This document shows, piece by piece, positions 1 to 20,292 of a stretch of DNA of 20,292 bases. Below the pieces are notes generated by a model. It saw nothing but the letters and a program-made list of their open reading frames with translations. It was not told the DNA's origin and did not search any database. Numbering within the stretch: the first letter of the stretch is position 1; each line of letters starts with the position of its first letter. Origin of the DNA: a virus. The stretch covers positions 1-20,292 of the IMG/VR virus record IMGVR_UViG_3300009034_003741. One strand, 5' to 3'. A program made the translations under genes and the position numbers.

Positions 1-156
1 CGTGAGATCGTTCGCCAGATATGGCAAGGGAATGTCGCGGTCAACAATGAGTTCCCTGGCCTAGAGTATCTGGCCGGTGGCGACCTGATACTCTAGGCCA
101 GGGAACTCATTGTTGACCGCGACATTCCCTTGCCATATCTGGCGAACGATCTCACG
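1..156. repeat. Perfect 70-bp inverted repeat at the contig end (fold-back)
   Basis: Bases 1-70 are the exact reverse complement of bases 87-156, separated by a 16-nt non-palindromic loop (71-86). The right arm is coding sequence of the methyltransferase gene; the left arm is its mirror image and terminates the contig. Such perfect fold-backs at contig tips are typical of amplification or library chimeras. A covalently closed hairpin telomere would look similar, but here the palindrome lies in the middle of a conserved enzyme domain, which argues against a genome end. Treat everything left of about base 87 as unreliable. Confidence 0.95.
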
Positions 157-672
157 TTGTGCTTGCACACCTGCCACCAGCATCTCTGCCAGCGTGACGA
201 GATTGTGCCCACTGCCACAACCGAATTCATATACAGTGTCGATATCTTCATTGTCGAAATAGGATAGGAAGAGAACTATTCGATAGAGCCTGTAGAAGGC
301 GAGCTCGATCAGCAATTCATTGTTTGCAATTGCATAGTCTCCATGGATTCGGACAGGCTGACCCTTCCTTAAAAGATATTTCGGGATGAGCCAATTGACA
401 TCCCCGGTCTCCCGGTAACCTGTAAGGTTCTGACCCCATCCAATATCCCACCTATCTTTCTCACCGGCCTCGGTGAGATTGTTAGAGTTGATCGTTTTGA
501 GCACTTCCAAGATGACTCGATCCCTGGAGTGCGTGAGAAGGAAACGATATGCCAGATCGATATATATGTTGCTAAAGTAATGATACCATTCTTCCTCAAC
601 AGGAAGTCCTATTATGTGGGAAAAATCATTGATATCAATCTGTCTTCTGTGTCCTGCCATGAGTTTTTCCAT
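61..672 (-). CDS. SAM-dependent methyltransferase, 3' end lost at the fold-back
   Basis: A class I (Rossmann-fold) SAM-dependent methyltransferase, presumably acting on a sugar intermediate of the adjacent cluster. The SAM-binding glycine motif EFGCGSGHN sits at about residues 149-157, after a long N-terminal region (MEKLMAGHRRQ...). The ATG at 672 overlaps the stop of the E1-beta gene as TAATG and has an AAAGGA ribosome site, so it is chosen over the upstream ATG at 762, which would overlap that gene by 90 bp. The frame runs into the inverted repeat: residues to about 195 are genuine, the next six come from the loop, and the last ones plus the stop come from the mirrored arm. Most of the catalytic domain after motif I is therefore missing from this contig. 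Substrate unknown. Confidence 0.8.
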   Translation of the reverse strand: MEKLMAGHRRQIDINDFSHIIGLPVEEEWYHYFSNIYIDLAYRFLLTHSRDRVILEVLKTINSNNLTEAGEKDRWDIGWGQNLTGYRETGDVNWLIPKYLLRKGQPVRIHGDYAIANNELLIELAFYRLYRIVLFLSYFDNEDIDTVYEFGCGSGHNLVTLAEMLVAGVQAQREIVRQIWQGNVAVNNEFPGLEYQVATGQIL

Positions 673-1718
673 TAGAATGGTCCTTTGAATCTGTTCTCGT
701 GAGAATAATCGATTACATTGTCCACATCCATTTTTTCCAGGCCAAGTTCCATTTCTATACATCGGATAAGGCTTATCGCATTCGGATAGAACTTATTTTC
801 CAGATGGCGGGCGGTTGGAATAGGTGAGGGCTTGAAACCTATGCGTATGATATGGCCGGGCAATACGCTACAATTCTCAAGCAGCGTACACATAATCTCT
901 GCAGAGAGGCCAGAATATCTCCAGTCATTATCTGCGATGATGACGCGCCTTGTCCTGTCTACCGAAGCAACGGCATTTCCTATACAGATGGGATTGGCCC
1001 AGCGAAGGTCAATTACCTCAACACTAACATCTCTCTCTTCCATGACCTCTGCTGCCTTCAATGCTTCGGCTACCATCCAGGACGTGGCTATGATAGTGAC
1101 ATCATCTCCATGGCGAATGATGTTACTTGTCATCGGCGTTTCATAGATTCCCTCCGGCACGTTCCCCTCTGCCCAGTAGAGCCAGCGATGCTCGATCAAA
1201 AGCGTGGGATCCGATCCCCTTATTGCGCTTATCAGCATCCCCTTGGCATCATGCGGTGAGAATGGCATACCAACCCTGAGTCCGGGAATGCCAGAGAACA
1301 TGCCATGTAGGGACTTGGAATGATGGCATCCCTGCCCCCATCCCCGGCCCACAATACCACGAATGGTAAGCGGGATAGGCTGTCCAGAGATATAATGATT
1401 ACTTGCTGCCATGTTGACCAATTGATTGAGGGCCAATAGCATAAAATCCATACGGATGTGAATCTGAACCGGGCGCAATCCACGCATGGCTGCACCGATA
1501 CCAAATCCTGTCAGCGCAGCTTCGGACAGAGGAGTATCCAATGATCGTCCCGGATAAAGTAGATCTAGTTTGTCTGTCGTACCGAACACTTTCTTGTGAT
1601 CCGGCACGCCGATCCCATAAACAAAAACAGATGGATCCTTTTCCATCATAAGTACCAACGCTTCATTGATAGCCTCAACGTAAGTTAGGCTCCTAGTATC
1701 TTCCACTGTATACCCCAC
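672..1718 (-). CDS. Alpha-ketoacid dehydrogenase E1 beta-like subunit (transketolase-type)
   Basis: Beta subunit of a thiamine-diphosphate-dependent E1-type enzyme, 348 aa, close to the usual 325-350 aa. Family motifs seen: DTPLSEAALTGFGIGAA (about 61-77), the GWGQGCHHSKSLHG stretch with the conserved His pair (about 127-139), and IPGLRVGMP followed by DAKGML (about 144-161), then the transketolase C-terminal domain. It should pair with the alpha subunit directly upstream to form an alpha2beta2 enzyme. The start is GTG at 1718, overlapping the alpha gene by 26 bp; the ribosome site is weak and a GTG four codons further in (1706) is also possible. The gene ends in TAATG with the methyltransferase. 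No lipoyl E2 or E3 gene is nearby, so a classical dehydrogenase complex is not supported. Related pairs occur in surface-polysaccharide loci (family knowledge); the substrate here is unknown. Confidence 0.88.
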   Translation of the reverse strand: MGYTVEDTRSLTYVEAINEALVLMMEKDPSVFVYGIGVPDHKKVFGTTDKLDLLYPGRSLDTPLSEAALTGFGIGAAMRGLRPVQIHIRMDFMLLALNQLVNMAASNHYISGQPIPLTIRGIVGRGWGQGCHHSKSLHGMFSGIPGLRVGMPFSPHDAKGMLISAIRGSDPTLLIEHRWLYWAEGNVPEGIYETPMTSNIIRHGDDVTIIATSWMVAEALKAAEVMEERDVSVEVIDLRWANPICIGNAVASVDRTRRVIIADNDWRYSGLSAEIMCTLLENCSVLPGHIIRIGFKPSPIPTARHLENKFYPNAISLIRCIEMELGLEKMDVDNVIDYSHENRFKGPF

Positions 1719-2637
1719 TTTCTACATCTTCATCTAGCGAATCTAGCTTCGCCATCTCCGCAGCGCGCTTGACTCTCCTCGCTACCGAGCTTTGTAATTC
1801 CCTGATTGCATTGAACGGGACACCGGCATTCATGAGATTGTTGATCCTGACAGAGATAGAATCTCGTTCCATCCATTGAAGATATTCATCTACAGATCTA
1901 TATTTCTCATCGTGATCGCTGTCTACACCAACATGCTCAAGATAGCGATAGTATTTCCAGTGAATAAATACCGGGATCCCGGCCTCTCCCCATTTTATTG
2001 CCTGCTGCGCGATACCGACCACATCATCCACGTCGGTTGACTCGCCAGAAAAGGTACCGATAAAGAAATGTTCCATGATAAGGTTCAGTTCCCCGGCATA
2101 TCCATTCCGCTGTATCTTCCTCGTATGTACTGCCAGATCGTTATCCTCACAGACAAAAATGATGGGCACACGATAGAGACAGGCCAGGTTGATCGACTCC
2201 CAAAATACTCCTTCATTTGTTGCGCCATCACCAAAGAATACTACAGCAATGCGATTGGTCTTGTTGTACTTTTCAGCAAAGGCGGCACCCACGGCGATGG
2301 GAATCTGTGCAGCAACAATGCCAGAGGAAAGGAAATGCCCAAAGTCCGGTTCTGCGATGTGCATGGATCCGGCCCGACCAGCATTCGGCCCCCTTGCCTT
2401 CCCATACATCTCTAGGAAAAATCCCTCTACATCATCCGTGCAGGCGAGAAATGGAGCGTGGCTTCGGTAGGAATTGAAAACGATAGCTCTTTCCCCGAGT
2501 GCATGCAGGATGCCAGTAGCAATGTGTTCGCTGCCCATTGACATATGCATTGGTGTTTTCATCTCATCTTCGCGATAATGGGAAGAAATATATGACTCGA
2601 CTTCGCGAATTGTATAAAGTGTTTTCAGTAGCTCCAT
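1693..2637 (-). CDS. Alpha-ketoacid dehydrogenase E1 alpha-like subunit (ThDP-binding)
   Basis: Alpha subunit of the E1-type ThDP enzyme, 314 aa. The cofactor/Mg motif is plain: GDGATNEG at residues 136-143, ending at EDN about 27 residues later (N166). Other E1-alpha signatures are HMSMGSEHIATG (about 31-42), SYRSHAPFLA (about 56-65), GRAGSMHI (about 87-94) and the SSGIVAAQIPIAVGAAFA stretch (about 104-121). The chemistry would be decarboxylation of a 2-ketoacid with formation of an acyl or hydroxyalkyl-ThDP intermediate; the acceptor is not known. The ATG at 2637 shares its A with the stop of the kinase gene (TAATG) and follows GGAAAGGAAATGTA, so translation is probably coupled. The phage setting is odd for a central-metabolism family and suggests a specialised sugar-modifying role (inference). 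Confidence 0.9.
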   Translation of the reverse strand: MELLKTLYTIREVESYISSHYREDEMKTPMHMSMGSEHIATGILHALGERAIVFNSYRSHAPFLACTDDVEGFFLEMYGKARGPNAGRAGSMHIAEPDFGHFLSSGIVAAQIPIAVGAAFAEKYNKTNRIAVVFFGDGATNEGVFWESINLACLYRVPIIFVCEDNDLAVHTRKIQRNGYAGELNLIMEHFFIGTFSGESTDVDDVVGIAQQAIKWGEAGIPVFIHWKYYRYLEHVGVDSDHDEKYRSVDEYLQWMERDSISVRINNLMNAGVPFNAIRELQSSVARRVKRAAEMAKLDSLDEDVESGVYSGRY

Positions 2638-3629
2638 TACATTTCCTTTCCAAATTTAGGCTGTATAATTTCTGCACCTTTGCGGGATAATGAAAACGGC
2701 ACGATAATAGATATGGGCTGCATTGTAGCAAGGAACTTTTCGCGTTCTTTCCAGGGAACGTAGAAAACCATAAAGCCCCCTCCGCCTGCCCCCAGCGCCT
2801 TTCCGCCGAGGGCACCCCCCTTTATTGCCTCATCATAGATATAATCTAGTCCCGAAGAGGCAGAGGAAATCATGGGCGAGAGAGACTTTTTGATTTGCCA
2901 GGATTCGTGCAAAAGGTGGCCGATATCATCCAGGCGATGGAGTACCAGGGCATAATATGCCTTATCCACCATCTCGACCAATTTGCCAACATCCTTTTCT
3001 CCGATATCTTTGACAATATCCTGGGCAATAAGGGAACTTCTTCTTTGGAGATGTGTATATACAAGGAATAGATTATTGATAAGATCGGACATTAGCATAT
3101 TTTCAGTATGCAAATCGATAATCTCCATCTTCTCACCCGGGCCAAATTCGTAGATGTGAAATCCGCCATATGTGGCCGCTGCCTGATCTTGCCAACCAAC
3201 TGTTTCCCCGAGAACTTCACGCTCCAGATAGATGCTATCCCTGAAAATAATTCTGTCCCATGGCGGATGTCCATCTTTATAGGTATAGAGAGCGTTGAGC
3301 AGGGCGACCGCGAATGAAGACGACGACCCCATGCCGGAACGAGCAGGAAGCTCGCCATGGTAGTGAATTTCAATCCCATCTGTTATGGGAGCCATCTCTA
3401 ATGCACCGCGAACTGCAGGATGCAAAATATCTCGGGCCTCCTCACATAACTCGACATGTCGCCATACGACCTTGAATGGGATTTCATGATATGGATGAGA
3501 AACAGAGATATAGCAATATTTATCGATAGCCATGCTTAACACCTTACCACCGTTATCGATAAACCATTCTGGATAGTCACTCCCTCCACCGAATAGAGAG
3601 ATACGATATGGAGCACGCGAGATGATCAT
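2637..3629 (-). CDS. GHMP-family sugar kinase, HddA-like
   Basis: A GHMP kinase of 330 aa that phosphorylates a sugar or sugar phosphate with ATP. The N-terminus MIISRAPYRISLFGGGSDYP and the following AIDKYCYISV strongly resemble D-glycero-alpha-D-manno-heptose-7-phosphate kinases (HddA). The ATP-binding motif 2 is at about residues 94-107 (LPARSGMGSSSSFA), and motif 3, GGKALGAGGGGFMVFYV, lies near the C-terminus. In HddA pathways the product feeds GDP-heptose formation; no isomerase, phosphatase or guanylyltransferase is in the window, so host or other phage genes would have to supply them. The start ATG overlaps the stop of the 69 aa gene by ATGA and the end overlaps E1 alpha by TAATG. Fucokinase or another sugar kinase cannot be excluded. 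Confidence 0.87.
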   Translation of the reverse strand: MIISRAPYRISLFGGGSDYPEWFIDNGGKVLSMAIDKYCYISVSHPYHEIPFKVVWRHVELCEEARDILHPAVRGALEMAPITDGIEIHYHGELPARSGMGSSSSFAVALLNALYTYKDGHPPWDRIIFRDSIYLEREVLGETVGWQDQAAATYGGFHIYEFGPGEKMEIIDLHTENMLMSDLINNLFLVYTHLQRRSSLIAQDIVKDIGEKDVGKLVEMVDKAYYALVLHRLDDIGHLLHESWQIKKSLSPMISSASSGLDYIYDEAIKGGALGGKALGAGGGGFMVFYVPWKEREKFLATMQPISIIVPFSLSRKGAEIIQPKFGKEM

Positions 3630-3835
3630 GGTTTCCTAAATAGCTCCCTGAGTCTTCTTTTCATTACTCTACGAAATTTATCTATGCTACGATTCTCAAT
3701 TGGCTTCTCTGCAGAAAGAAGGATATCGATGGCTCTTTCCCTATCCTCTGCACTCATTGTGCCACAACAGAGATCGTCCCTCTTCTTTCTGTTCATTTCC
3801 TCAATTAGTCTATATAGCGTCCCGCTACTATCCAT
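3626..3835 (-). CDS. Small charged protein of unknown function (69 aa)
   Basis: I do not recognise this protein. It is 69 aa, rich in Arg/Lys and Glu/Asp, probably helical, with a Cys-Cys pair at about residues 23-24 and a very basic C-terminus (MKRRLRELFRKP). It is likely a real gene: it overlaps the upstream dehydratase by 8 bp, ends in an ATGA overlap with the kinase, and has the ribosome site AAGGAAAA just before its ATG at 3835. Its place between two sugar enzymes suggests a role or partner in the same pathway, but nothing in the sequence says which. Confidence 0.7.
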   Translation of the reverse strand: MDSSGTLYRLIEEMNRKKRDDLCCGTMSAEDRERAIDILLSAEKPIENRSIDKFRRVMKRRLRELFRKP

Positions 3836-4787
3836 TTTTCCTTGCCTTTGCCCTGTGATACTCTAGCAGATCATTAAGTGTTCTTCTCAGCGGAATCTCA
3901 GGCTCCCATCCCGTTTTTTCTGTGAACTTCTTTGTGTCGGGAATTTGCAATGTCACATCTGTATGCCTGAAAAGAGAGAGATCGGACTTATACTCAATCT
4001 TGGCGGTCGATAGCGAGATAAGAATCTGCAGCATATTCTCTATGCTCATTGTTTCACATCCACCTATGTTATACACCTGCCCGAAAGAGCAGAACTGTGT
4101 CAACCAGTATGCTCTTACCATATCCCTCACATCACAGAAGGTACGTATAGAGGTAAGGTTACCGACGTTGATAGTGTCACGGTGGCCCATCTCCACTTCT
4201 ACGATTTGTTTAGCGAAAGCAGAAGCAACAAAGACATCGCCACGCCTGGGCCCGGTGTGCGTGAAGGCCCTGGTGCGAACTGTAGGTAGTCCATGCGCTT
4301 CATATTCTTCCTGGGCAAGCAGATCTACCGCCGCCTTACTTACACCGTATGGAGAGACTGGGTTAAGTGGGTGAGCCTCATCCATAGGAGTATATTCGGG
4401 TTGCCCATATACCTCAGATGAAGAACATACATGCACCATTTTCACACATTCCGCCCTTCTCGCAGCAAAGAAGAGATTGGCTGAACCAATCACGTTAGTC
4501 TGCAGTGTGGAGATGGGAGCCGTATGAGAGTAAGGAACGTAGCTCTGGGCAGCAAGGTGGAAAATGATATTCGGCCTGACGCTATCAATCACTTTCTCTA
4601 TAGATTCGAGATCCAGCAGATCGCCAAACCTGAGAGTGATAGAGCGATTGATGAGAAGATGAGAAATGTTGTCTAACGGGCTTCGCCACCGAGCAAGACC
4701 ATAGACGCGGTGTTGATAATGATTAACGATGAAATCCGCCAGGTGAGAGCCGACAAATCCGGTTATTCCAGTTATGAGGATATTCAA
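3828..4787 (-). CDS. GDP-mannose 4,6-dehydratase-like SDR (NDP-sugar 4,6-dehydratase)
   Basis: Extended short-chain dehydrogenase of 319 aa, predicted to convert a GDP-sugar (mannose or manno-heptose type) to its 4-keto-6-deoxy form with bound NADP. Seen: dinucleotide motif TGITGFVGSHL (about 6-16), active-site CSSSEVYG (about 121-128, with the Glu expected of dehydratases), an intact YGVSK (Y147, K151), and the family signature THTGPRRGDVFV, typical of GDP-mannose 4,6-dehydratases. The start is TTG at 4787 after GAAAGGAACTTCG, a leader almost identical to that of the glycosyltransferase gene at 14380. With the HddA-like kinase downstream it recalls the DmhA step of 6-deoxy-heptose synthesis (family knowledge; assignment here is inference). 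Length is a little short compared with 340-370 aa Gmd proteins. Confidence 0.87.
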   Translation of the reverse strand: MNILITGITGFVGSHLADFIVNHYQHRVYGLARWRSPLDNISHLLINRSITLRFGDLLDLESIEKVIDSVRPNIIFHLAAQSYVPYSHTAPISTLQTNVIGSANLFFAARRAECVKMVHVCSSSEVYGQPEYTPMDEAHPLNPVSPYGVSKAAVDLLAQEEYEAHGLPTVRTRAFTHTGPRRGDVFVASAFAKQIVEVEMGHRDTINVGNLTSIRTFCDVRDMVRAYWLTQFCSFGQVYNIGGCETMSIENMLQILISLSTAKIEYKSDLSLFRHTDVTLQIPDTKKFTEKTGWEPEIPLRRTLNDLLEYHRAKARKNG

Positions 4788-4799
4788 CGAAGTTCCTTT

Positions 4800-5774
4800 C
4801 TATTCAGTAATTTCTGAAGTTCTATCTCGATACCATTTGATTGTCTCCCTTAGTCCATCCTCTAGGGAGTATTCCGTCTTGAACCGTAGTATACCACAAG
4901 AACGCGAAATATCCAAAATTCTTACCGGGATAGTTGTGGGCTTTGTATCATCGTAAATAATCTCGGAAGGCCGATGTCCTGATACTTCAGCCAGCGTATC
5001 TACGACCTCGCGAACTGTCTTCGGATCACCAGAGGCAATATTAAAATCGGTATACCCTATTTGCGGGTGCCTTCCGGTGAACTCGCTTGCATCTATGATA
5101 CCACGGGCCAGATCCTTGACATAGATATAATCACGGATTTCTTCCCCCGTGCCCCACACGACAAGTGGATCTGCTTTTAACTCAAACTCACTAATCTTAT
5201 TAGCTATAAAGTGCGAGAGATGAGGATCGAACTTGTCACGCGGTCCATAGGTATTCGATGGGCGGATGATGCAGGTCTTCATTTTGCGTTCCAGGCGTGT
5301 GGCATAGGAGATGCATAGAACCTCTGCAAACTTTTTCATCCAGGCAACCCACCAGTACTTTGGGTGCGGAGAGCCCTCCCAGGCCATGGATTCAACACAT
5401 GGAACCTTGCCCATGTCCGGATAGACGCATGATGACGAGATGAAAGTGAAAACCTCCACTCCACATTGATACGCCGCATTGAGCATGTGGGTATTCATTA
5501 CAATATTATCGGTGACATGGACGAGCGGATTGTTAACCATGTCATACGCACCAGAGGTAATCGCTGCGCACATGAAGACGCGGGAAGCTCTCCAGCAGGC
5601 ACGCATACAGTCATCCATATTGCGTAGATCGGCACGGATTTGCTCCGGGCCATTTCTGCGAGGAGCAGACATAAAATAGGTACCGCGAACAGAATGCCCA
5701 CGGCTGATCAATTCATCTGTGACATGTGAGCCGATGAGACCCGAGTCCCCGGCTATGAGACAATCAATTTTCAC
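4800..5774 (-). CDS. GDP-fucose-synthase-like NAD-dependent epimerase/reductase
   Basis: Extended SDR of 324 aa resembling GDP-L-fucose synthases (3,5-epimerase/4-reductase) and NDP-sugar epimerases. The dinucleotide motif is AGDSGLIGSHV (about 8-18); FISSSCVYPD (about 111-120) and RPSNTYGPRDKFDP (about 171-184) are family signatures. By hand alignment the catalytic YxxxK reads VAWMK: Lys147 is kept but the Tyr position is Val143. The start is GTG at 5774, well placed after AGAAGGAGAACTCTTCA and at the beginning of the Rossmann strand; a longer ORF reaching 5921 would lie inside the upstream gene. It overlaps that gene by 11 bp. Most likely it follows the 4,6-dehydratase in the pathway, but the missing Tyr leaves its activity uncertain. 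Confidence 0.82.
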   Translation of the reverse strand: MKIDCLIAGDSGLIGSHVTDELISRGHSVRGTYFMSAPRRNGPEQIRADLRNMDDCMRACWRASRVFMCAAITSGAYDMVNNPLVHVTDNIVMNTHMLNAAYQCGVEVFTFISSSCVYPDMGKVPCVESMAWEGSPHPKYWWVAWMKKFAEVLCISYATRLERKMKTCIIRPSNTYGPRDKFDPHLSHFIANKISEFELKADPLVVWGTGEEIRDYIYVKDLARGIIDASEFTGRHPQIGYTDFNIASGDPKTVREVVDTLAEVSGHRPSEIIYDDTKPTTIPVRILDISRSCGILRFKTEYSLEDGLRETIKWYRDRTSEITE

Positions 5775-6546
5775 TGAAGAGTTCTCCTTCTTTGTAAGGA
5801 ATCGAATCGGTAGGCAACACGCTGTCGCCGGGCTTCTGGGGGCAGGGATTGTCAAGATAGATAACCGGAAGGCCAAACAAGGTCTGCTGGCCCCCATCGG
5901 CCCCTTTTGCTTCACTGGCATCCCAAGGAAGGTTGTTTATAAGCGAAAGACCGGACAGGGCCTGTTTTCCTTTGTCGTCCGTAGCAGGCTCAGTCGGATT
6001 ATGCAGCACGCTTGCATCCCGCTCGGAGAGAATTGGCGTGGATATAGGCCAACGAATGCCCACCGTTGGATCGTTCCAGGCAATAGTGAACTGCCCCTCG
6101 CGATCATAGAGTTCTGATTGCTTGTAGTGAAAAATCGCTATATCCGTGAGAACAAGATGCCCATTTCCACAGCCTGGCGGAATGAGGACAGATAGATAGT
6201 TACGATCCGACAAGGTAAGCCCCACGTATTGATATCGAGTCGGTGAATCTTCTCTCCAGTCTACCACGACAAGGAAGAAAGCTCCATAGAGACACGAAAC
6301 GAGCTTGTACGTTTTGTAATCTCCATGGATGCCGCGCAGGACATTGCGCCGAGAAATCGAGATATCATCTGCACACCATATGCTCGGGCCATTCTCGTCA
6401 CGAATACCTACATGACCAAGGCGACAGTCATAATCGAGGAAATTCCACAGCTCGCGATAAACGCCACGGTGATCTTCGAATACGGGTGGTGGCGTGACAA
6501 GCTTAACGCCTTTTATTTCTGTATCGATTACATTGATTCCTGACAT
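5764..6546 (-). CDS. RmlC-type dTDP-4-keto-sugar 3,5-epimerase-like cupin with C-terminal extension
   Basis: Cupin-fold NDP-4-keto-sugar 3- or 3,5-epimerase-like protein. RmlC signatures: FEDHRGVYREL (about 23-33), SRRNVLRGIHGD with the candidate catalytic His74, IPPGCGNGHLV (about 122-132), HYKQSELYD with a candidate catalytic Tyr141, and WNDPTVGIRWP (about 157-167). The cupin is complete by about residue 180; the remaining 80 residues are a Pro/Gly/Ser-rich tail not typical of RmlC (usually about 180 aa). It would act on a 4-keto intermediate such as the 4,6-dehydratase product, like the epimerase step in GDP-6-deoxy-heptose routes (inference). The ATG at 6546 follows an AAGGGGG site and overlaps the fusion gene by 19 bp. 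Confidence 0.87.
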   Translation of the reverse strand: MSGINVIDTEIKGVKLVTPPPVFEDHRGVYRELWNFLDYDCRLGHVGIRDENGPSIWCADDISISRRNVLRGIHGDYKTYKLVSCLYGAFFLVVVDWREDSPTRYQYVGLTLSDRNYLSVLIPPGCGNGHLVLTDIAIFHYKQSELYDREGQFTIAWNDPTVGIRWPISTPILSERDASVLHNPTEPATDDKGKQALSGLSLINNLPWDASEAKGADGGQQTLFGLPVIYLDNPCPQKPGDSVLPTDSIPYKEGELFSEN

Positions 6547-8870
6547 TGCTCCCCCTTTAGTGGGTTATAACGATTCTTTTCTTGCCCGTTAGCGAGATAC
6601 CACTCTATGGTCTGGGTAATTCCTTCTTCAAGTCTAACCCCTGGTTTCCACCCCCATAAAAGGAGGGCTGCAACATTGCTCAATACACGGCGGGGAAATC
6701 CTGATGGTTTTGTCTTGTCATACACATAGAGAACATCAAGGTGACTACAGATAATTTCTGCAACGGTATTGATAGAATATGCATCCGAGCCCCCAAGATT
6801 GACATATGTATAATTGTGCATTCCATATCGCCCGGCTGCCAGAATTCCCCTCGCTACATCCGTACAGTAAACAAAGTCGCGAACAGCCTTACCATCTCCC
6901 CATACTACAACATCTTCACCGCTCTTTTTCGCCAGGCATGCCTTGGCGATTAGCGAAGGAATGACCATCCCTGTCTCAGGATCAAAGTTGTCACCAGGGC
7001 CATAGACATTGGATGGACGGACGATAGACCAGCAAATGCTTTTCCCACATTCATTGATGTGTGCACGCATAGCTTCCTCGATAGCAAGCTTTGCTAGGCC
7101 AGGAAGATCCATAGGATATTCGTTAGTATCCAATGACTCGAAGTATATCTCTTTCCCGGGCGGATATGCCCCGATAGATGAGACAAACACGAGAGTTTGG
7201 ATATTGTACTTGATAGCAGAGCTAACAATATTCATACCCATCTGGAGCATCGGAGTATAGAATGCACTGACCCTGCTCTTTGAAACACCAGGATTGCCCT
7301 TGGTGCCCGCGACGTGGAAAATTGTATCGTGGATACTTGCGAGCCGATCACATACCCCGGATTCGGTCAGATCGTCTACAAGATACGTGACACCTTTTAT
7401 TTTTGCCTCATCTTCTGGCAATTCGAGCGAAACTGATGTAACAATCGCCTTTTCCTCTACGAGCAGGCGGCAGACTTCTCTTCCAATCATCCCCGTACCG
7501 CCCGTGACCAGGCATTTCTTTCCTATATAATTCAGGTGGTCCTCTTTGGCCTCGATCTTTAGGGATGGATGGCGACCGACCGTTTCATAGCGAGCCCCAC
7601 GAGAGACTACAGCCTGCTCGTCAACTATCCTCCAGGGATCGAAAACGATCTGCCCTGGCATGAGGGCTTCTATAAGTTCATCGAGATCTGCATCGCTATG
7701 GTGGCGAGTGACGGCGATGGTACCTGCCCCGTACATAGTATCGGTGAGAGAAGGGTTGCCACTATAGACTGCAGAATCATAAGTTCGACATTGGCTAGAT
7801 CGGAAATACTTGGATAACTCATATCCAAACGACACATTACATTTAGTGCCCTCCTTGAAAGCAAGACCCATGATGACAAGCACATCATTTTCAGCCTCAC
7901 TTATAAGCTTGGCCACTTTTGATATCAAGTACTGTGTATATAGCTCATTGTTCCCTGCCATGTTATCGACAAGACACATTTCATGCCTCCCGATGTCATA
8001 CTCTATGCTGCCCATTACGTCAAGATCTCTTGGGAAGCATGGGCCGCCAACAGGAGTCCCAATAGAAAAATACTTATCTCCAATCCGGCTATCCATACCG
8101 ACGCCCTTTAGTACCTCCCTACCATCCACGTCCTTGAGGGATTCGCAGATGTAACCAATATGGTTTGCCAATATGACTTTATTCGATATGGCAACATTGG
8201 TTGAGAGTTTGATCATCTCGGCATTGGCAATGGAAGTACAAAAAATCCGCGTGGGAATCTCCCCATGATGTGTTACATCCTCGGCAAGGAGTAATATTGA
8301 ATCTTTTTCCTCTTCTGTATCCGCGCCAAGAATAATGTACGGCGGATTCGTAAAGCCACTCATCATCTTCCCAAGAGCAACGAACTCGGGCCAGTAGCAA
8401 AGATTGAAGTCTTTCCCACGCTTGGCACCCCCTATTTCCAGTGCACATAGGATGTCATCATTGCAATCGCCGGGATTGATTGTGGAAGAAACAATGACAG
8501 TGCGTTGTGAGTCCTTCAGATGTGGAGCAATCGCCGCGCATACCCTAAGAACCTGATTGATGGAAAAGGAACCATCGTATGCCGATGGCGTCCCGACCAT
8601 GATAATGATATAGCTGCTATTGGCAACACCATAGTCAGTACTGGATGTTACCTGAAAATCACAGTATTTGATCACATGATCCAATGCTTCTTTAACATCT
8701 GGTTCTGCAATATGATTCGAGATCTCTTTCTGGTAGATCTTGGTAACTAGAACTTTATCCTTATCGACGCCAATGACATTGCACCCGGCAATGGCAAACG
8801 ATAAGGCCAATGGCAGCCCAAGCTGGCCCAGGCCGATTACGCAGACATCATGATTCGTCTTCTCGTACAT
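6528..8870 (-). CDS. Fusion: NDP-sugar (UDP-glucose/GDP-mannose-type) dehydrogenase + NAD-dependent epimerase (SDR)
   Basis: A 780 aa two-domain enzyme. Residues 1 to about 435 are a nucleotide-sugar 6-dehydrogenase: NAD motif GLGQLG (13-18), Lys231 in NKVILAN, and catalytic Cys278 in GGPCFPRD. Residues about 448-760 are an extended SDR: GGTGMIG (457-463), VSSIGAYPP (about 563-571), RPSNVYGPGDNFDP (about 618-631). At the YxxxK position it reads PGLAK (Pro590, Lys594), so the usual catalytic Tyr is absent. The dehydrogenase would oxidise C6 of an NDP-hexose to a uronate; the SDR half might epimerise or decarboxylate it. The true start is ATG at 8870, right after AAAGGAG and the upstream stop; the ORF extends further upstream to 9152 but that lies inside the glycosyltransferase gene. 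The KxxTDDxR-like motif of dehydrogenases is altered (KEGTKCNV, about 339-346). Confidence 0.88.
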   Translation of the reverse strand: MYEKTNHDVCVIGLGQLGLPLALSFAIAGCNVIGVDKDKVLVTKIYQKEISNHIAEPDVKEALDHVIKYCDFQVTSSTDYGVANSSYIIIMVGTPSAYDGSFSINQVLRVCAAIAPHLKDSQRTVIVSSTINPGDCNDDILCALEIGGAKRGKDFNLCYWPEFVALGKMMSGFTNPPYIILGADTEEEKDSILLLAEDVTHHGEIPTRIFCTSIANAEMIKLSTNVAISNKVILANHIGYICESLKDVDGREVLKGVGMDSRIGDKYFSIGTPVGGPCFPRDLDVMGSIEYDIGRHEMCLVDNMAGNNELYTQYLISKVAKLISEAENDVLVIMGLAFKEGTKCNVSFGYELSKYFRSSQCRTYDSAVYSGNPSLTDTMYGAGTIAVTRHHSDADLDELIEALMPGQIVFDPWRIVDEQAVVSRGARYETVGRHPSLKIEAKEDHLNYIGKKCLVTGGTGMIGREVCRLLVEEKAIVTSVSLELPEDEAKIKGVTYLVDDLTESGVCDRLASIHDTIFHVAGTKGNPGVSKSRVSAFYTPMLQMGMNIVSSAIKYNIQTLVFVSSIGAYPPGKEIYFESLDTNEYPMDLPGLAKLAIEEAMRAHINECGKSICWSIVRPSNVYGPGDNFDPETGMVIPSLIAKACLAKKSGEDVVVWGDGKAVRDFVYCTDVARGILAAGRYGMHNYTYVNLGGSDAYSINTVAEIICSHLDVLYVYDKTKPSGFPRRVLSNVAALLLWGWKPGVRLEEGITQTIEWYLANGQEKNRYNPLKGEQCQESM

Positions 8871-8880
8871 GTTTTCTCCT

Positions 8881-9849
8881 TTACTTGATTCTATCGAAGG
8901 CAGATCGAATGACCCGCCTAAGCTGCGGTGCTCGAACCATCCACGTATGGAATTGAATAGTGTATTCTCGTGCAGAATGTGCGATTTCCTGCCACATCCG
9001 CCCTCCCACAAGATCTTCAAGTTTTTCGGCAACCTGGTAACAATCTCGATCTGTATAGATGGGGATTTCTTCTTCATCAAATTGCTTATACTCCTCACTT
9101 CTGGGCCACGTAAAGGAAATATACTTTCCTCCCCAGTCTTCCCCGCTGACAACCGGCATGGTATTGCTCAGTGTTGCACAACCACTTATCGATGCATCAA
9201 AAATTCTAGGTGGGCGGGTTTTCATCGTCCTGTTCATATGGATTACGACTCTGGTATGGGAAAGAAGATCGCGATATTCTTTACCGACAGATTTTCCGTG
9301 TGTAGAGCGATAGGTCCATCCTTTTCTGCGACAAAATCCCTCTAGCCATCTGTCCATTGCCGCTCGCTCTTTATTCCACCCGAGAACATAGTAGAACCCG
9401 ACATCTATGGTCTTTTCACCCACGGTATAATATTGCTCATTCGTGCAATATGGCATGCGAAAACACGGAAGATTTGTTGCCTTTCTCCACCTTTCCACAT
9501 CATCGTGATCTATCAGGACAATATCTGCATCCTTTTTCGCCCTGGCTACCCGACGAGTGAAATGTGAGTTGGTCAAGGTTGGATAGAGAGCGTACATGCA
9601 TACTTGTGGGACCATATAGGTTTTGTGTGGAGATAAGGGCGAGAACCCCGCATAATCTTTGTACTTGCCGTCGTCCCAGAAGACAATATCATACTTGCGA
9701 TATTGATGCAGGTCGAGCCTGAAGCCCTTTGTGACTACGAGATGATCCCAGGTGAATTCCGGAACTGGATATTGAAAGAAACCATCGATCCTATCCTCTC
9801 CACGGTACCAATCATTTTTGTGGACAAGTAAAGTGCGAATAGGGTTCAT
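8881..9849 (-). CDS. Glycosyltransferase, CgeB/GT-B-like
   Basis: Putative glycosyltransferase of 322 aa with two Rossmann-like halves. The C-terminal half carries RPPRIFDASISGCATLSN (about 212-229), then GEDWGGKYISF, the pattern seen in CgeB-like/Glyco_trans_1_2 proteins that bind a nucleotide sugar; the final helices include the HSAREYTIQFHTW segment. No signal peptide or membrane segment is visible, so it is cytoplasmic. The ATG at 9849 gives an ATGA overlap with the preceding gene and is preferred to the ATG four codons upstream (9861). It directly precedes the dehydrogenase-SDR fusion, separated only by its stop codon and the ribosome site, suggesting it uses a sugar made by the cluster (inference). 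Donor and acceptor unknown. Confidence 0.75.
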   Translation of the reverse strand: MNPIRTLLVHKNDWYRGEDRIDGFFQYPVPEFTWDHLVVTKGFRLDLHQYRKYDIVFWDDGKYKDYAGFSPLSPHKTYMVPQVCMYALYPTLTNSHFTRRVARAKKDADIVLIDHDDVERWRKATNLPCFRMPYCTNEQYYTVGEKTIDVGFYYVLGWNKERAAMDRWLEGFCRRKGWTYRSTHGKSVGKEYRDLLSHTRVVIHMNRTMKTRPPRIFDASISGCATLSNTMPVVSGEDWGGKYISFTWPRSEEYKQFDEEEIPIYTDRDCYQVAEKLEDLVGGRMWQEIAHSAREYTIQFHTWMVRAPQLRRVIRSAFDRIK

Positions 9850-10424
9850 AAATATTTCCACTCTGTCACAATTCTATCCTTTAGCTCCGTTACTTCCTCC
9901 GGTCCCATTCTCTTCAACAGCTCTTCCATAATCTTGTCAATTTCTTCCTTACTGATTGCATTGTGCTTGGCCTTGAGTCCCATCAGCCATTTGATATGTG
10001 CCTCATCCACTATTCTTTGATCCATATGGCGAGGAGTATCCCCGCCAAGGATGACAATAGTATTACCATAATGATTAGAAAAGCGCATCTCTGGATAAAG
10101 CTCTCTTGCGGTCAGCTTTTCAATTACATATTCGACGGGCCATCTATCTTTGAACCACTGCGGAGCCCATCTTTCCTTGATGGCTTCCCACCAATCAAGA
10201 GGATATCGAACTTCTTTTTCTTGTGCCTCCCGGCCCCAAATTGCCTTAGTAATACGGAGAATAATCTGATCCGAGAAAAACTTGGACCATATAGAGACAT
10301 CAATATGCGGTTCTTCTCCACACAAAAGCTCATCTGGAAGATATTGCATGGCGGCAAGCTTGAACTTTTCTAGCTTTACTTTCTTGTAATCCATTTCTCC
10401 ATTACCGGCCCAATTTTCCCTCAT
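9846..10424 (-). CDS. Hypothetical protein (192 aa)
   Basis: Not recognised. A 192 aa soluble protein rich in Trp, Lys and Glu, with an aromatic central part (PLDWWEAIKERWAPQWFKD) and a charged helical C-terminus. The ATG at 10424 lies 9 nt after AAAAAGGAGG. A second ATG at 10394, eleven codons in, is a possible alternative but its GGAG is only 2 nt away. It ends in an ATGA overlap with the CgeB-like glycosyltransferase. No motif supports a function. Confidence 0.65.
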   Translation of the reverse strand: MRENWAGNGEMDYKKVKLEKFKLAAMQYLPDELLCGEEPHIDVSIWSKFFSDQIILRITKAIWGREAQEKEVRYPLDWWEAIKERWAPQWFKDRWPVEYVIEKLTARELYPEMRFSNHYGNTIVILGGDTPRHMDQRIVDEAHIKWLMGLKAKHNAISKEEIDKIMEELLKRMGPEEVTELKDRIVTEWKYL

Positions 10425-11732: not shown

Positions 11733-11974
11733 CTCACCACCTCCTCCCCGCCCTGCTGGCGGGTGGCATGTGTCCGTATCTCGCTGCGTAAGATATTGGC
11801 GATAAAGGCAATGCTTCGAAACAGCCATATGTCACTCTGCTCTAAATAGCGTGAAGCAGTCGTGGCACGCGAAAGGAAACTACCAGCGCAAATCTCACAG
11901 AAGCCATAGACCTTTGTGCCATACGCATAATCTCCTAGTTCGGTATCATAGCCACAGTTATCGCACTCTGCCAT
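11729..11974 (-). CDS. Small zinc-ribbon-like protein (81 aa)
   Basis: An 81 aa protein with two Cys pairs, C4-x2-C7 and C26-x2-C29 (AECDNCGYD and YGFCEICAG), the spacing of a zinc ribbon or treble clef. The rest is helical without clear motif. The ATG at 11974 shares its A with the stop of the ASCH gene (TGATG) and follows GGAAGGAGGGG; a longer ORF up to 12124 lies inside that gene. It ends in an ATGA overlap with the next gene. Its role is unknown; small zinc ribbons in phages often bind nucleic acid or other proteins (family knowledge). Confidence 0.7.
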   Translation of the reverse strand: MAECDNCGYDTELGDYAYGTKVYGFCEICAGSFLSRATTASRYLEQSDIWLFRSIAFIANILRSEIRTHATRQQGGEEVVR

Positions 11975-12727: not shown

Positions 12728-14380
12728 CTATCTTTTCTTTCTTCTGAATTGGCCCACCTTTTCCCAGGCTTCCTTACTATCGCTTCTACCTTGGATCGTT
12801 CCTTCCCACCTTCGTGCAGTCATTGGATAATGGAGAATTCCAGCGCTATATTCCTCCGGATTCTCTACATATCTAGTAATTGTATTCCAGCGATTATTCA
12901 GAACGAAGAGCTTGACCGGGTGATCCCACAGGGCGCGAAGAAGGGCAGCCTGATCTCTCTTTCCCCACTTTTTCCACTCCTTATGCCAGGCATGGAAGAA
13001 ATCTCTCGTTCGTTCATTCCTGCGAAAGGCAAGAACTCCACCGTTGAGTTGGATAACTTCCTGAGTGCCAATTTTATTGAATGTCTTATTGCACTCATCT
13101 TTATTGTCTGGGCGAACCATGCGACGGGCGATGTGAAACTTGCCCGGGTTGGTACAGATGACCATATCCCAACCATCCTGAAGGATCTTGAAGAGAAATT
13201 TGGGATCGGGTGATATAATCTCAGTATCTGCATCGAGATACATCACATAGCTCCAATTGGAAGGAGTAAGATCGTACATTGCAGTCTTGGCATGTCGAGC
13301 ACCGACATCTACATCATCACATTTGATATGGTGATCCTCAACACCGATTGGTTCCTCGCTGGCCAGGGCAATCTCGATATCCTCTGGCATAAACCTGCGG
13401 AAGCTTTTCATAGCTTGCTTGGCACACTTGCGTGCAGGCTTCCCGAAGGCGACATAGTACACGCCGCGATTGGAATTGATCGGTTCTGTGACTGGTGCCG
13501 TATCGTTTAACAATGACTCGAATGCCTCCCGGTGATCCGAAATCCACCTTTCCTCTGTATAATCACTCACTGCATCATGAAGAGCCTGCCTATCGACCTC
13601 GCCACTATGGATGGCTTGCTTTAGTGCTCTTTCCATCTGTTTCACATCGCCCCGCTCATATCTGTAAATCCCGTCCATCTCTGGAAGTTCATCCAGTAGG
13701 CCAACATTTGTAGGAATGACGATCTTGATCCCGCATGCCAGTGCTTCTAATGGCGGCATTGGATTGCCCTCGATCAGGGAAGTGCATAGGAGGATAGAGA
13801 GACCTTGGAAAAAGCGTGGAAGCTCGTCCAGGCCATAGCGAACGGAAACAATATTGGGCCACCCCTCCCCGCTTGCCGCGAGGCGTACTTTATTCATAAT
13901 AGGGCGAGAGCGTATTTGATTGAGTAATTCTGCGCCCTTTCTCTCGCCATACCTCTTGGGAACGAAGCCGCTAACGCCAACGATGGGTATATTGGTATCT
14001 GGAGGATCGACTATAGTAAACCCGGGACCAATAGGTGGATGAACTTGAGATACCCTTTTTGCGCCCTGGCTAAGGAGCATATCCCTATACAGCTTGCTTG
14101 TTACAATACAGAGATCGATCCTTTCCAATGCCTGTTTCCACCAGCGAGATTTATCTGCACGATTCCTTTCAAAGTGGGTAAAGTAGGCAGCAGTTGGTGT
14201 TTCGTTCCAGTTGAGATAAGTCTCACTGTATTCAATGTAAACTGAAAAGTAATTCAGGTCCGCACTGCCGTTCGGCCCGTGACCGGCATGCCATCCCGGC
14301 ACACGAGCTAGCGTGTTGGATAGCCTCGGGAGGATTTTATCAGATGAGTCATAGTCCCTACAGACAATATGTACGTGCAA
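12728..14380 (-). CDS. Two-domain glycosyltransferase (GT-B/GT4-like + GT-A/DxD)
   Basis: 550 aa, two catalytic-looking domains. Residues 1 to about 290 are GT-B/GT4-like with the C-terminal EX7E motif (E204-GNPMPPL-E212) followed by ALACGIKIVIPTNVG. Residues about 305-550 are a GT-A domain: GVYYVAFGK, the DxD motif in MYLDADTEI (D383, D385), LNGGVLAFRR, and FFHAWHKEWKKW with DQAALLRALWDHP. The second domain is clearly paralogous to the stand-alone protein at 15085-15705. Such fusions can add two sugars in sequence. The start is TTG at 14380 after AGAAAGGAAGTTCG; no better start lies nearby. No membrane segment is seen, so a cytoplasmic enzyme using nucleotide sugars is likely. Acceptor unknown. 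Confidence 0.85.
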   Translation of the reverse strand: MHVHIVCRDYDSSDKILPRLSNTLARVPGWHAGHGPNGSADLNYFSVYIEYSETYLNWNETPTAAYFTHFERNRADKSRWWKQALERIDLCIVTSKLYRDMLLSQGAKRVSQVHPPIGPGFTIVDPPDTNIPIVGVSGFVPKRYGERKGAELLNQIRSRPIMNKVRLAASGEGWPNIVSVRYGLDELPRFFQGLSILLCTSLIEGNPMPPLEALACGIKIVIPTNVGLLDELPEMDGIYRYERGDVKQMERALKQAIHSGEVDRQALHDAVSDYTEERWISDHREAFESLLNDTAPVTEPINSNRGVYYVAFGKPARKCAKQAMKSFRRFMPEDIEIALASEEPIGVEDHHIKCDDVDVGARHAKTAMYDLTPSNWSYVMYLDADTEIISPDPKFLFKILQDGWDMVICTNPGKFHIARRMVRPDNKDECNKTFNKIGTQEVIQLNGGVLAFRRNERTRDFFHAWHKEWKKWGKRDQAALLRALWDHPVKLFVLNNRWNTITRYVENPEEYSAGILHYPMTARRWEGTIQGRSDSKEAWEKVGQFRRKKR

Positions 14381-15084: not shown

Positions 15085-15705
15085 TTACGTTCTCCTCGCT
15101 GCGCGGCCAAATAGATGGCCAATAACAGCTCCGCCATTCCATGGGCGCCCGAGAAGCCATACATGCAAAGGAAAAGCAGCCATGGCTCTCAGCATCGCGC
15201 CCTGATCTTGATCGCTAAACTTGCCCCACTCCTGTCTCCAGGAATGGAAAAACTTGTGTACCTGCGGATTCTTTCTGAAAAAGAACACCCCTCCCTGCAG
15301 GGAGAGAATCCGGCGAGATGAGTAAGCATCTATTGTTCTCCAAATCTCCTCTTTGCTGCACTTCCACAAAAAGCCCTCATTTTGTTGCGGCGAGATGGTA
15401 ACGACAAAATCCCATCCATCATCCAGGGGCTTGAAGCCCTTGTGTATAGATTGATAAGGACGTGTATCTGCATCAATATACATGGTATGATCGTATGGAG
15501 AGAGCAGATCGATATTAAGCTTGGCTTGCCTGCCGCCACGATCCTTATCCGGAAACTCAATCCAGTGAACATTGGCATCGGGATAAGGACGGTTGCTAAT
15601 CAGAGAGATTGGATAGTCATTGTAGCGACGAAGAAAGGAGATAGATTGAAAAAACTCATCCCGAGCCCTCTTCCCGTAAGCCACATAGACTATCCCCGCT
15701 GTCAT
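15085..15705 (-). CDS. GT-A-fold glycosyltransferase (DxD)
   Basis: 206 aa stand-alone GT-A domain: GIVYVAYGKRARDEFF (about 4-19), a DxD motif in MYIDADTRP (D78, D80), SLQGGVFFFRK (about 135-145) and FFHSWRQEWGKFSDQDQGAMLRAM (about 152-175, split here into family positions FFHSW and DQGAMLRAM). It is paralogous to the C-terminal half of the 550 aa protein, sharing the DxD, GG and W/DQ blocks in the same order. The start is ATG at 15705, where ATGA overlaps the upstream membrane-protein gene; the longer ORF to 15801 is inside that gene. There is no good ribosome site, so coupling is likely. It would transfer a sugar from a nucleotide donor in a metal-dependent reaction. Confidence 0.8.
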   Translation of the reverse strand: MTAGIVYVAYGKRARDEFFQSISFLRRYNDYPISLISNRPYPDANVHWIEFPDKDRGGRQAKLNIDLLSPYDHTMYIDADTRPYQSIHKGFKPLDDGWDFVVTISPQQNEGFLWKCSKEEIWRTIDAYSSRRILSLQGGVFFFRKNPQVHKFFHSWRQEWGKFSDQDQGAMLRAMAAFPLHVWLLGRPWNGGAVIGHLFGRAARRT

Positions 15706-15917
15706 GACAACAACTTGAAAAAGACAGATAAAATGACCCATAGTGGTAATGAGATAGGCCAAAACACGCTCAGACCCAGGATGAAAACAATAGAAAAGCA
15801 ACCTTCTTTTATTCCCTGCTTCGCGACGACGTATGCGGTGAATATAACTAACGCAAGCGCAATCGAACTATACCACAAAGTAAACACGAGCCAAAACCAG
15901 AATCCCAAATCCATCAT
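15702..15917 (-). CDS. Small two-pass membrane protein (71 aa)
   Basis: 71 aa, almost entirely hydrophobic: one helix at about 6-32 (WFWLVFTLWYSSIALALVIF), a short polar loop with VAKQGIKEG, and a second helix at about 41-68. The ATG at 15917 overlaps the previous stop (ATGA) and has GAGAAAGGAAAAAGAGCA upstream; a second ATG follows directly. Two-helix proteins of this size include holins and small flippase or anchor subunits, but no lysin is adjacent and no specific motif is present, so the role is open. Confidence 0.68.
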   Translation of the reverse strand: MMDLGFWFWLVFTLWYSSIALALVIFTAYVVAKQGIKEGCFSIVFILGLSVFWPISLPLWVILSVFFKLLS

Positions 15918-20278: not shown

Positions 20279-20292
20279 TCCCAACTCCTTAG

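What the first reader, a model, noticed from the sequence alone, without database searches (positions are those of the whole stretch)
2637..6546. Phage-borne kinase / 4,6-dehydratase / epimerase / reductase set resembling modified GDP-heptose synthesis
Beside phage head genes lie an HddA-like GHMP kinase, a Gmd-type 4,6-dehydratase with intact SSSE and YGVSK sites, a GDP-fucose-synthase-like SDR and an RmlC-type 3,5-epimerase, all overlapping and co-directional. The same set of activities (HddA, DmhA, 3,5-epimerase, 4-reductase) makes 6-deoxy-heptoses in Campylobacter capsule loci. A phage carrying this many steps suggests it makes its own sugar for virion glycosylation or for altering host surface glycans. 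The substrate assignment is inference; the missing isomerase, phosphatase and guanylyltransferase may lie beyond the left end.
Basis: partly seen in the sequence, partly recalled or inferred. Interest (0 to 1): 0.75.

Follow-up and report, generated by a model that had tools for sequence, protein, structure and literature searches.

The report
Phage cassette for a branched heptose
This virus of bacteria carries, downstream of its capsid gene, a conserved set of enzymes that probably builds an unusual seven-carbon sugar with an extra two-carbon branch; the same set occurs in many uncultured bacteria and in a second related phage, so it is a real, heritable phage trait rather than an assembly accident.

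Summary
The GDP-heptose reading is supported for two of them. The dehydratase is closest to Campylobacter GDP-heptose 4,6-dehydratase (1e-68, against 5e-33 for GDP-mannose dehydratases) and sits in its clade; the epimerase is closest to GDP-heptose epimerases. The kinase is HddA/WcbL-like but far below the HddA equivalog cut-off; the reductase is closest to GDP-fucose synthase.

The E1-centred set recurs in 33 bacterial/archaeal loci (dehydratase nearby in 25, against 0 of 46 ordinary E1 loci); one carries a complete GDP-heptose supply set (gmhA, gmhB, hddC-like). A second phage contig with a related capsid has the same gene order, and six of seven gene trees pair the two, so chimerism is very unlikely.

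Best explanation: GDP-6-deoxy-4-keto-heptose is made and E1 adds a two-carbon branch at the ketone, as proposed for AviB1/B2 in antibiotics; the product probably feeds the conserved phage glycosyltransferases. Product, acceptor and target are untested. New variant of a known kind.

The parts
17941..19242 (-). HK97-type major capsid protein (phage hallmark; upstream of the cassette)
   Evidence: phrog_10 2.1e-52; PF05065 6.9e-47; 55-93% identical copies in 11 IMG/VR contigs
15085..15801 (-). GT-A-like glycosyltransferase (GT3), conserved phage block
   Evidence: No Pfam or PHROG hit; homologous to the C-terminal half of GT2; in the same order after the capsid gene in related phages
12728..14380 (-). 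Two-domain glycosyltransferase (GT2), conserved phage block
   Evidence: Glycos_transf_1 2.4e-6, phrog_2170; 35-80% identical in related phages
8881..9861 (-). Glycosyltransferase (GT1)
   Evidence: PF13524 5e-8; 52% identical in the sister phage
6528..8870 (-). Nucleotide-sugar dehydrogenase (UGDH type) fused to an extended SDR (SDR2); start at 8870 after AAAGGAG
   Evidence: TIGR03026 233 bits, above its cut-off of 189.8; Epimerase domain 2e-40; two separate genes in the sister phage
5764..6546 (-). RmlC-type 3,5-epimerase; the last ~80 aa lie outside the epimerase domain
   Evidence: PF00908 1e-40; best solved relatives are GDP-heptose 3/5-epimerases, 4e-35 against 1.6e-25 for RmlC; H67, K74, Y134, D173 kept
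4800..5774 (-). GDP-fucose-synthase-like SDR (SDR1), probable ketone reductase
   Evidence: PDB 1e6u 4e-36; NF047922 6.5e-41, below its cut-off
3828..4787 (-). NDP-sugar 4,6-dehydratase of the GDP-heptose (DmhA) clade
   Evidence: PDB 7us5 1.4e-68, 2pk3 5e-60, GMDs 5e-33; CSSSEVYG and YGVSK; tree
3626..3835 (-). Small 69-aa ORF of unknown function
   Evidence: Overlaps both neighbours; no family hit
2637..3629 (-). HddA/WcbL-like GHMP sugar kinase
   Evidence: PDB 4usm/4usk (WcbL) 1e-31; WcbL catalytic R13 and D163 match R9 and D148
1693..2637 (-). ThDP-dependent E1 alpha subunit (alpha-keto-acid-dehydrogenase type)
   Evidence: PF00676 2.5e-45; GDG...N ThDP motif invariant in 11 relatives
672..1718 (-). 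ThDP-dependent E1 beta subunit
   Evidence: PF02779 and PF02780; active-site Glu (E66, in DTPLSE) and H133 invariant in 16 relatives
79..762 (-). Class I SAM methyltransferase, cut by the contig end
   Evidence: 33% identical to full-length homologues of the cassette; fold-back at the contig end; homologue folds as a class I methyltransferase

Best explanation
A tailed phage carries an inherited operon for an unusual nucleotide-activated sugar. [quoted passage not shown] GmhA, GmhB and HddC activities, not found on this contig, come from the host or from unsequenced phage DNA. The DmhA-like dehydratase makes GDP-6-deoxy-4-keto-heptose. The RmlC-type enzyme epimerises C3 and/or C5. The E1 alpha/beta enzyme decarboxylates pyruvate on thiamine diphosphate and adds the two-carbon unit to the sugar ketone, leaving a tertiary alcohol with an acetyl branch. 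SDR1 and/or SDR2 reduce a remaining ketone, and the methyltransferase methylates the product. The phage's own glycosyltransferases then attach it to the virion or the host surface. Shown here: gene content, catalytic residues, family and clade of the dehydratase and nearest relatives of the epimerase, conservation of the cassette in bacteria and in a sister phage, selection on its proteins. Inferred: substrate, order of steps, the branch, the target.
For: Dehydratase: best solved relative is GDP-heptose 4,6-dehydratase 7us5, 1.4e-68, against 5e-33 for GMDs; in one clade with it apart from GMD and RMD, 95/97 support. Epimerase: top eight solved relatives are GDP-heptose-pathway epimerases; catalytic H67, K74, Y134, D173 and N121/H123 kept. 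Kinase: WcbL/HddA nearest, catalytic R and D kept. Bacterial locus L046 has HddC-like, GmhB, GmhA, dehydratase, kinase, E1 alpha/beta and methyltransferase in a row; L041 and L044 have GmhA with an HddC-GmhB-like gene. E1: dehydratase present in 25 of 33 loci of this E1 subfamily, 0 of 46 ordinary E1 loci; no E2 or E3 recognised among the shared neighbour families. Precedent: AviB1/AviB2, Pau11/Pau12 and KbDH are proposed or shown to add a C2 unit from pyruvate to a ketone or ketosugar (PMC4425429; PMC12247030). Phage trait: sister phage L192 collinear; window and sister pair in six of seven trees; changes concentrated at third codon positions.
Against: No biochemical data. Kinase, epimerase and dehydratase all score below the NCBIfam equivalog cut-offs. 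The epimerase has Ser where C. jejuni enzymes have Ile56, a position proposed to contact C7. If a C4 reductase and E1 both use the 4-ketone they compete, so two products, or a later role for the SDRs, must be assumed. Similarity of this E1 pair to AviB/KbDH was not compared directly. gmhA, gmhB and hddC are absent from the window and from the sister contig, and four large IMG/VR contigs have dehydratase and E1 without the kinase.
Confidence: 0.5

Rival explanations
1. A plain GDP-6-deoxy-heptose pathway as in Campylobacter capsules. Kinase, dehydratase, epimerase and SDR1 make an unbranched 6-deoxy-heptose, and the E1 pair serves another sugar or another purpose.
For: All four Campylobacter-type activities are present. 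Many IMG/VR contigs have kinase plus dehydratase without this E1 subfamily.
Against: E1 alpha/beta lies directly next to the kinase or dehydratase in the window, the sister phage and many bacterial loci. SDR1 is not nearest to the Campylobacter reductases.
Confidence: 0.22
2. A hexose pathway: the dehydratase acts on GDP-mannose or another NDP-hexose and the HddA-like kinase phosphorylates a hexose, giving a branched or 6-deoxy hexose.
For: Curated HddA cut-off not met; Ser as in RmlC at epimerase position 56; SDR1 closest to GDP-fucose synthase; heptose supply genes absent from both phage contigs.
Against: Large score gap in favour of heptose dehydratases and epimerases; gmhA, gmhB and hddC-like genes in related bacterial loci; WcbL-type kinase residues.
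Confidence: 0.18
3. E1 alpha/beta is an ordinary dehydrogenase component (pyruvate or acetoin) carried to alter host central metabolism, unrelated to the sugar genes.
For: Pfam E1 family; nearest solved structures are pyruvate dehydrogenase E1.
Against: Scores far below the curated PDH cut-offs (210 against 394 and 224 against 321 bits); in relatives it travels with sugar genes (25 of 33 against 0 of 46).
Confidence: 0.06
4. Assembly chimera joining phage genes to a bacterial polysaccharide locus.
For: The sugar genes have many bacterial relatives; the contig end is a fold-back.
Against: A second contig with a related capsid (75%) has the same order from capsid through E1 beta at 30-60% protein identity in the sugar genes, and six of seven trees pair the two. 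All genes on one strand without a sharp break in base composition at the cassette.
Confidence: 0.02

Closest known systems
Campylobacter jejuni capsular GDP-6-deoxy-heptose pathways (HddA, GDP-heptose 4,6-dehydratase DmhA/WcbK, C3/C5-epimerases MlghB/DdahB, C4-reductases; PMC10680097, PMC7949155)
   Same: Same activities; dehydratase and epimerase have these enzymes as nearest solved relatives.
   Different: Here phage-borne; with an E1 alpha/beta pair, methyltransferase, UGDH and second SDR; reductase nearer GDP-fucose synthase; gmhA, gmhB and hddC not on the contig.
alpha-keto-acid-dehydrogenase-2 sugar-branching enzymes (AviB1/AviB2, Pau11/Pau12, KbDH-alpha/beta; PMC4425429, PMC12247030)
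   Same: Two-subunit ThDP E1 beside an NDP-sugar 4,6-dehydratase, epimerase and ketoreductases, with no E2 or E3 seen.
   Different: Known cases are antibiotic clusters; here the partner is a GDP-heptose-type dehydratase in a phage and in polysaccharide-type bacterial loci. Sequence clade with AviB not tested.
Cyanophage heptose and LPS genes (SynMITS9220M01, Bellamy; PMC7378029)
   Same: Phage-borne HddA-like kinase and DmhA-clade dehydratase (45% identical), with nucleotidyltransferase, GmhA and glycosyltransferases nearby.
   Different: No E1 alpha/beta of this type found there; T4-like phages rather than this HK97-type lineage.
Virion-glycosylating phages with their own glycosyltransferases (mycobacteriophages Che8, Corndog, Myrna; PMC12363180)
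   Same: Phage-encoded glycosyltransferases; here a glycosyltransferase block follows the capsid gene.
   Different: Here the phage also carries sugar-nucleotide biosynthesis; the glycan target is unknown.

Membership tests
GDP-heptose 4,6-dehydratase (DmhA/WcbK) | Closer to characterised heptose dehydratases than to GDP-mannose dehydratases | tested here: met
   7us5 1.4e-68 against 5e-33; clade with 7us5 supported 95/97
GDP-heptose 4,6-dehydratase (DmhA/WcbK) | Dehydratase catalytic residues S/T-E and YxxxK | tested here: met
   CSSSEVYG and YGVSK, as in 7us5
[quoted passage not shown]
   Needs enzyme assay
HddA/WcbL heptose-7-phosphate kinase | GHMP fold motifs and WcbL catalytic R13 and D163 | tested here: met
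   R9 and D148 aligned, also invariant in 10 relatives
HddA/WcbL heptose-7-phosphate kinase | Curated NCBIfam equivalog cut-off for HddA | tested here: not met
   112.5 bits against 600; described as HddA-like, not filed as HddA
GDP-heptose C3/C5-epimerase (MlghB/DdahB) | Catalytic H67, K74, Y134, D173 | tested here: met
   All kept
GDP-heptose C3/C5-epimerase (MlghB/DdahB) | Proposed C7-contact residues Ile56 and His123 | tested here: inconclusive
   His123 kept, Ile56 is Ser
C2-branching alpha-keto-acid dehydrogenase 2 (AviB1/B2, KbDH) | Alpha and beta E1 subunits with intact ThDP and active-site residues | tested here: met
C2-branching alpha-keto-acid dehydrogenase 2 (AviB1/B2, KbDH) | Linked to a 4-ketosugar-forming dehydratase, without E2/E3 | tested here: met
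   25 of 33 against 0 of 46 loci; no E2/E3 recognised among shared neighbours (not an exhaustive profile search)
C2-branching alpha-keto-acid dehydrogenase 2 (AviB1/B2, KbDH) | Sequence clade with AviB or KbDH | not tested
   Reference sequences were not at hand
C2-branching alpha-keto-acid dehydrogenase 2 (AviB1/B2, KbDH) | Carboligation of pyruvate to a ketosugar | not testable with these tools
   Needs assay
Pyruvate dehydrogenase E1 | Curated PDH E1 cut-offs | tested here: not met
   210 against 394 bits (alpha), 224 against 321 (beta)

The most novel reading that the evidence does not exclude
An undescribed and widespread pathway for two-carbon-branched GDP-6-deoxy-heptoses (nine-carbon sugars), shared by uncultured bacteria of many phyla and by several phage groups, with phages using the sugar to decorate virions or to remodel the host surface.
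Probability: 0.35. Interest if true: 0.78.

Novelty: new variant of a known kind. Interest (0 to 1): 0.6.

Why it matters
Two-subunit thiamine enzymes that graft two carbons onto ketosugars are described from antibiotic clusters. Here the same kind of enzyme is tied to GDP-heptose chemistry in surface-polysaccharide-type loci of many phyla and in phages, which predicts a class of branched heptoses that can be tested with a handful of purified proteins. It would also show a phage committing at least eight genes to a sugar that its own glycosyltransferases could use, making a virion-glycosylation hypothesis testable.

Tried and rejected
Kinase alone as a viral query found nothing; an alignment query then found at least 107 viral contigs. 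E1 alpha against deposited phages gave only weak, ordinary E1 hits. Terminase and T4-portal profiles marked only one of the four large IMG/VR contigs (L011) as phage, so L010, L012 and L013 are not relied on as phages. The fold search of the methyltransferase gave only generic class I matches (TM about 0.4), so its acceptor is not inferred. Considered and rejected: chimerism (sister contig); the stop at 61 as a real gene end (fold-back); filing the kinase as HddA or E1 as PDH (cut-offs not met). tRNA search empty. The E1 alpha model was not searched further. The 7us5 paper was not held. Literature searches found no report of this gene combination, but the library lacks most subscription journals.
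Full report
What is there. The window is effectively a whole 20,293-base IMG/VR virus record. All credible genes lie on the minus strand. Transcription runs from a highly charged protein (19244-20290) and an HK97-type capsid protein (17941-19242), through small proteins and glycosyltransferases GT3 and GT2, regulators, GT1, then a nucleotide-sugar dehydrogenase fused to an SDR (6528-8870), the RmlC-type epimerase, SDR1, the dehydratase, a 69-aa ORF, the kinase, E1 alpha, E1 beta and a methyltransferase cut by the contig end. The finding's four genes are confirmed at their coordinates.

The contig end. Bases 1-76 are an inverted copy of 81-156 (97%, 4 bases apart), a fold-back. The stop of the methyltransferase ORF at 61 is therefore artefactual and sequence left of about 80 is not new. 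Nothing can be said about genes beyond it.

Family placement. Dehydratase: GDP-heptose 4,6-dehydratase 7us5 at 1.4e-68, then 2pk3 reductase 5e-60, then GMDs at 5e-33. In a 45-protein tree, 7us5, a cyanophage enzyme, the cassette enzymes and the window form one group apart from GMD and RMD (95/97); the RMD rows have long branches. Epimerase: the eight best solved relatives are GDP-heptose-pathway C3 and/or C5 epimerases (4e-35 to 9e-34), RmlC follows at 1.6e-25. Mapped on MlghB numbering the window reads S56 H67 K74 N121 H123 F132 Y134 D173: catalytic residues kept, H123 heptose-like, S56 as in RmlC (PMC7949155). Kinase: WcbL/HddA nearest at 1e-31, WcbL catalytic R13 and D163 kept, but 112.5 bits against the curated 600. 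SDR1: E. coli GDP-fucose synthase 4e-36; the entries 7anh, 8ewu, 7m13 and 7anc, which I take to be the Campylobacter heptose reductases (deposited as GDP-L-fucose synthase), come only at about 1e-18 to 4e-13.

A scan of about 85,000 bacterial and archaeal genomes with E1 alpha found 33 loci at 42-48% identity plus lower-scoring ordinary E1 proteins. In L014-L046 the neighbourhood contains E1 beta in 32, dehydratase in 25, SDR1 in 21, RmlC in 18, kinase in 18, SDR2 in 17 and methyltransferase in 15 of 33; in the 46 ordinary E1 loci L048-L093 none of these was found. Several loci are cut by contig ends, so these are lower bounds, and the loci were picked with this window's E1 alpha, so they are not an unbiased sample. 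The order dehydratase-kinase-E1 alpha-E1 beta(-methyltransferase) recurs, some loci with an extra gene between. In Anaerolineae locus L046 the genes HddC-like, GmhB (164 bits, cut-off 178), GmhA (193 bits, cut-off 209) precede dehydratase, kinase, NUDIX, E1 alpha, E1 beta and methyltransferase. L041 and L043 have an HddC-GmhB fusion, and L041 and L044 a GmhA. This is the strongest evidence that the starting sugar is a heptose.

Role of E1. Its ThDP motif and active-site residues are invariant among relatives. No E2 or E3 was recognised among shared neighbour families. The literature gives a precedent: AviB1/AviB2 and Pau11/Pau12 (PMC4425429; PMC4753412) and KbDH (PMC12247030) are reported or proposed to put a two-carbon branch from pyruvate on C3 or C4 ketosugars, with the branch ketone then reduced, methylated, oxidised or aminated. 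Some cassette loci carry further thiamine enzymes: split transketolase (13 loci), once fused to the methyltransferase (L018), and acetolactate-synthase-like proteins (L026). That fits a theme of carbon-branch chemistry but is inference.

Phage linkage. Eleven IMG/VR contigs carry related capsids (55-93%), and most of those long enough share the block capsid, o17418, o16163, GT3, GT2. Contig L192 (the record of L109; 15,716 bases) has capsid 75%, o17418 58%, o16163 44%, GT3 42%, GT2 52%, GT1 52%, then UGDH 30%, SDR2 41%, RmlC 51%, SDR1 43%, dehydratase 55%, kinase 37%, E1 alpha 45%, E1 beta 60%, in the window's order. There UGDH and SDR2 are separate genes, an HNH-like ORF lies between dehydratase and kinase, and the kinase is split between two reading frames. 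The window and this contig are sisters in the trees of dehydratase (99/89), E1 beta (97), SDR1 (99), RmlC (94), E1 alpha (95) and weakly SDR2 (51), but not the kinase, whose branches are long. Between the two, third codon positions differ at 65-68%, second positions at 24-39%, consistent with selection on the proteins. Chimerism is thus very unlikely, and the cassette predates the split of two well-diverged phages.

Wider occurrence. HddA-like kinases were found in at least 107 IMG/VR contigs, and 45 of the 80 kept carry a DmhA-clade-like dehydratase nearby. L156, with RecA and other replication genes, has dehydratase, E1 alpha, E1 beta, SDR2, RmlC, SDR1, kinase and HddC-like; L145 is similar but its locus begins inside E1 alpha. 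IMG/VR classification was taken as given. Phage-borne heptose genes as such are already reported in cyanophage SynMITS9220M01 (PMC7378029), so that part is not new.

Conclusion. Supported: an inherited phage cassette of GDP-heptose-type enzymes joined to an E1 pair, matching a bacterial cassette. Inferred: GDP-6-deoxy-4-keto-heptose as intermediate, a C2 branch, use by the adjacent glycosyltransferases. Open: substrate, product, target, host, and the source of GmhA, GmhB and HddC activities.

Noticed in passing
window 1-156: Fold-back at the contig end: arms 1-76 and 81-156, 97% complementary, 4 bases between; truncates the methyltransferase gene.
   Followed up: yes
window 6528-8870: UGDH-type dehydrogenase and SDR2 are one ORF here but two genes in the sister phage contig.
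   Followed up: partly
window 12728-14380 and 15085-15801: GT2 appears to be a GT-B domain plus a GT-A-like domain (DADTE motif); GT3 resembles its second half. Both belong to a conserved block after the capsid gene in related phages.
   Followed up: partly
window 5764-6006: The epimerase ORF has about 80 extra C-terminal residues outside the RmlC domain.
   Followed up: no
L018:9732-11663: The cassette methyltransferase is fused to a transketolase C-terminal half; other loci have split transketolase genes next to it.
   Followed up: partly
L030, L037, L041, L043, L044: Two E1 alpha/beta pairs of different subfamilies lie in the same locus.
   Followed up: no
L109:7374-8400: An HNH-endonuclease-like ORF sits between dehydratase and kinase in the sister phage, and its kinase is split between two frames.
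   Followed up: partly
L112-L191: HddA-like kinases are common in viral contigs (at least 107), often with a DmhA-clade-like dehydratase.
   Followed up: partly
window 19244-20290: Very acidic, Lys/Glu-rich protein upstream of the capsid gene; no Pfam hit.
   Followed up: no
window 11974-12708: Member of phrog_874 (unknown function, 2e-60) in a stretch of higher G+C (about 0.55-0.58) between GT2 and the cassette.
   Followed up: no
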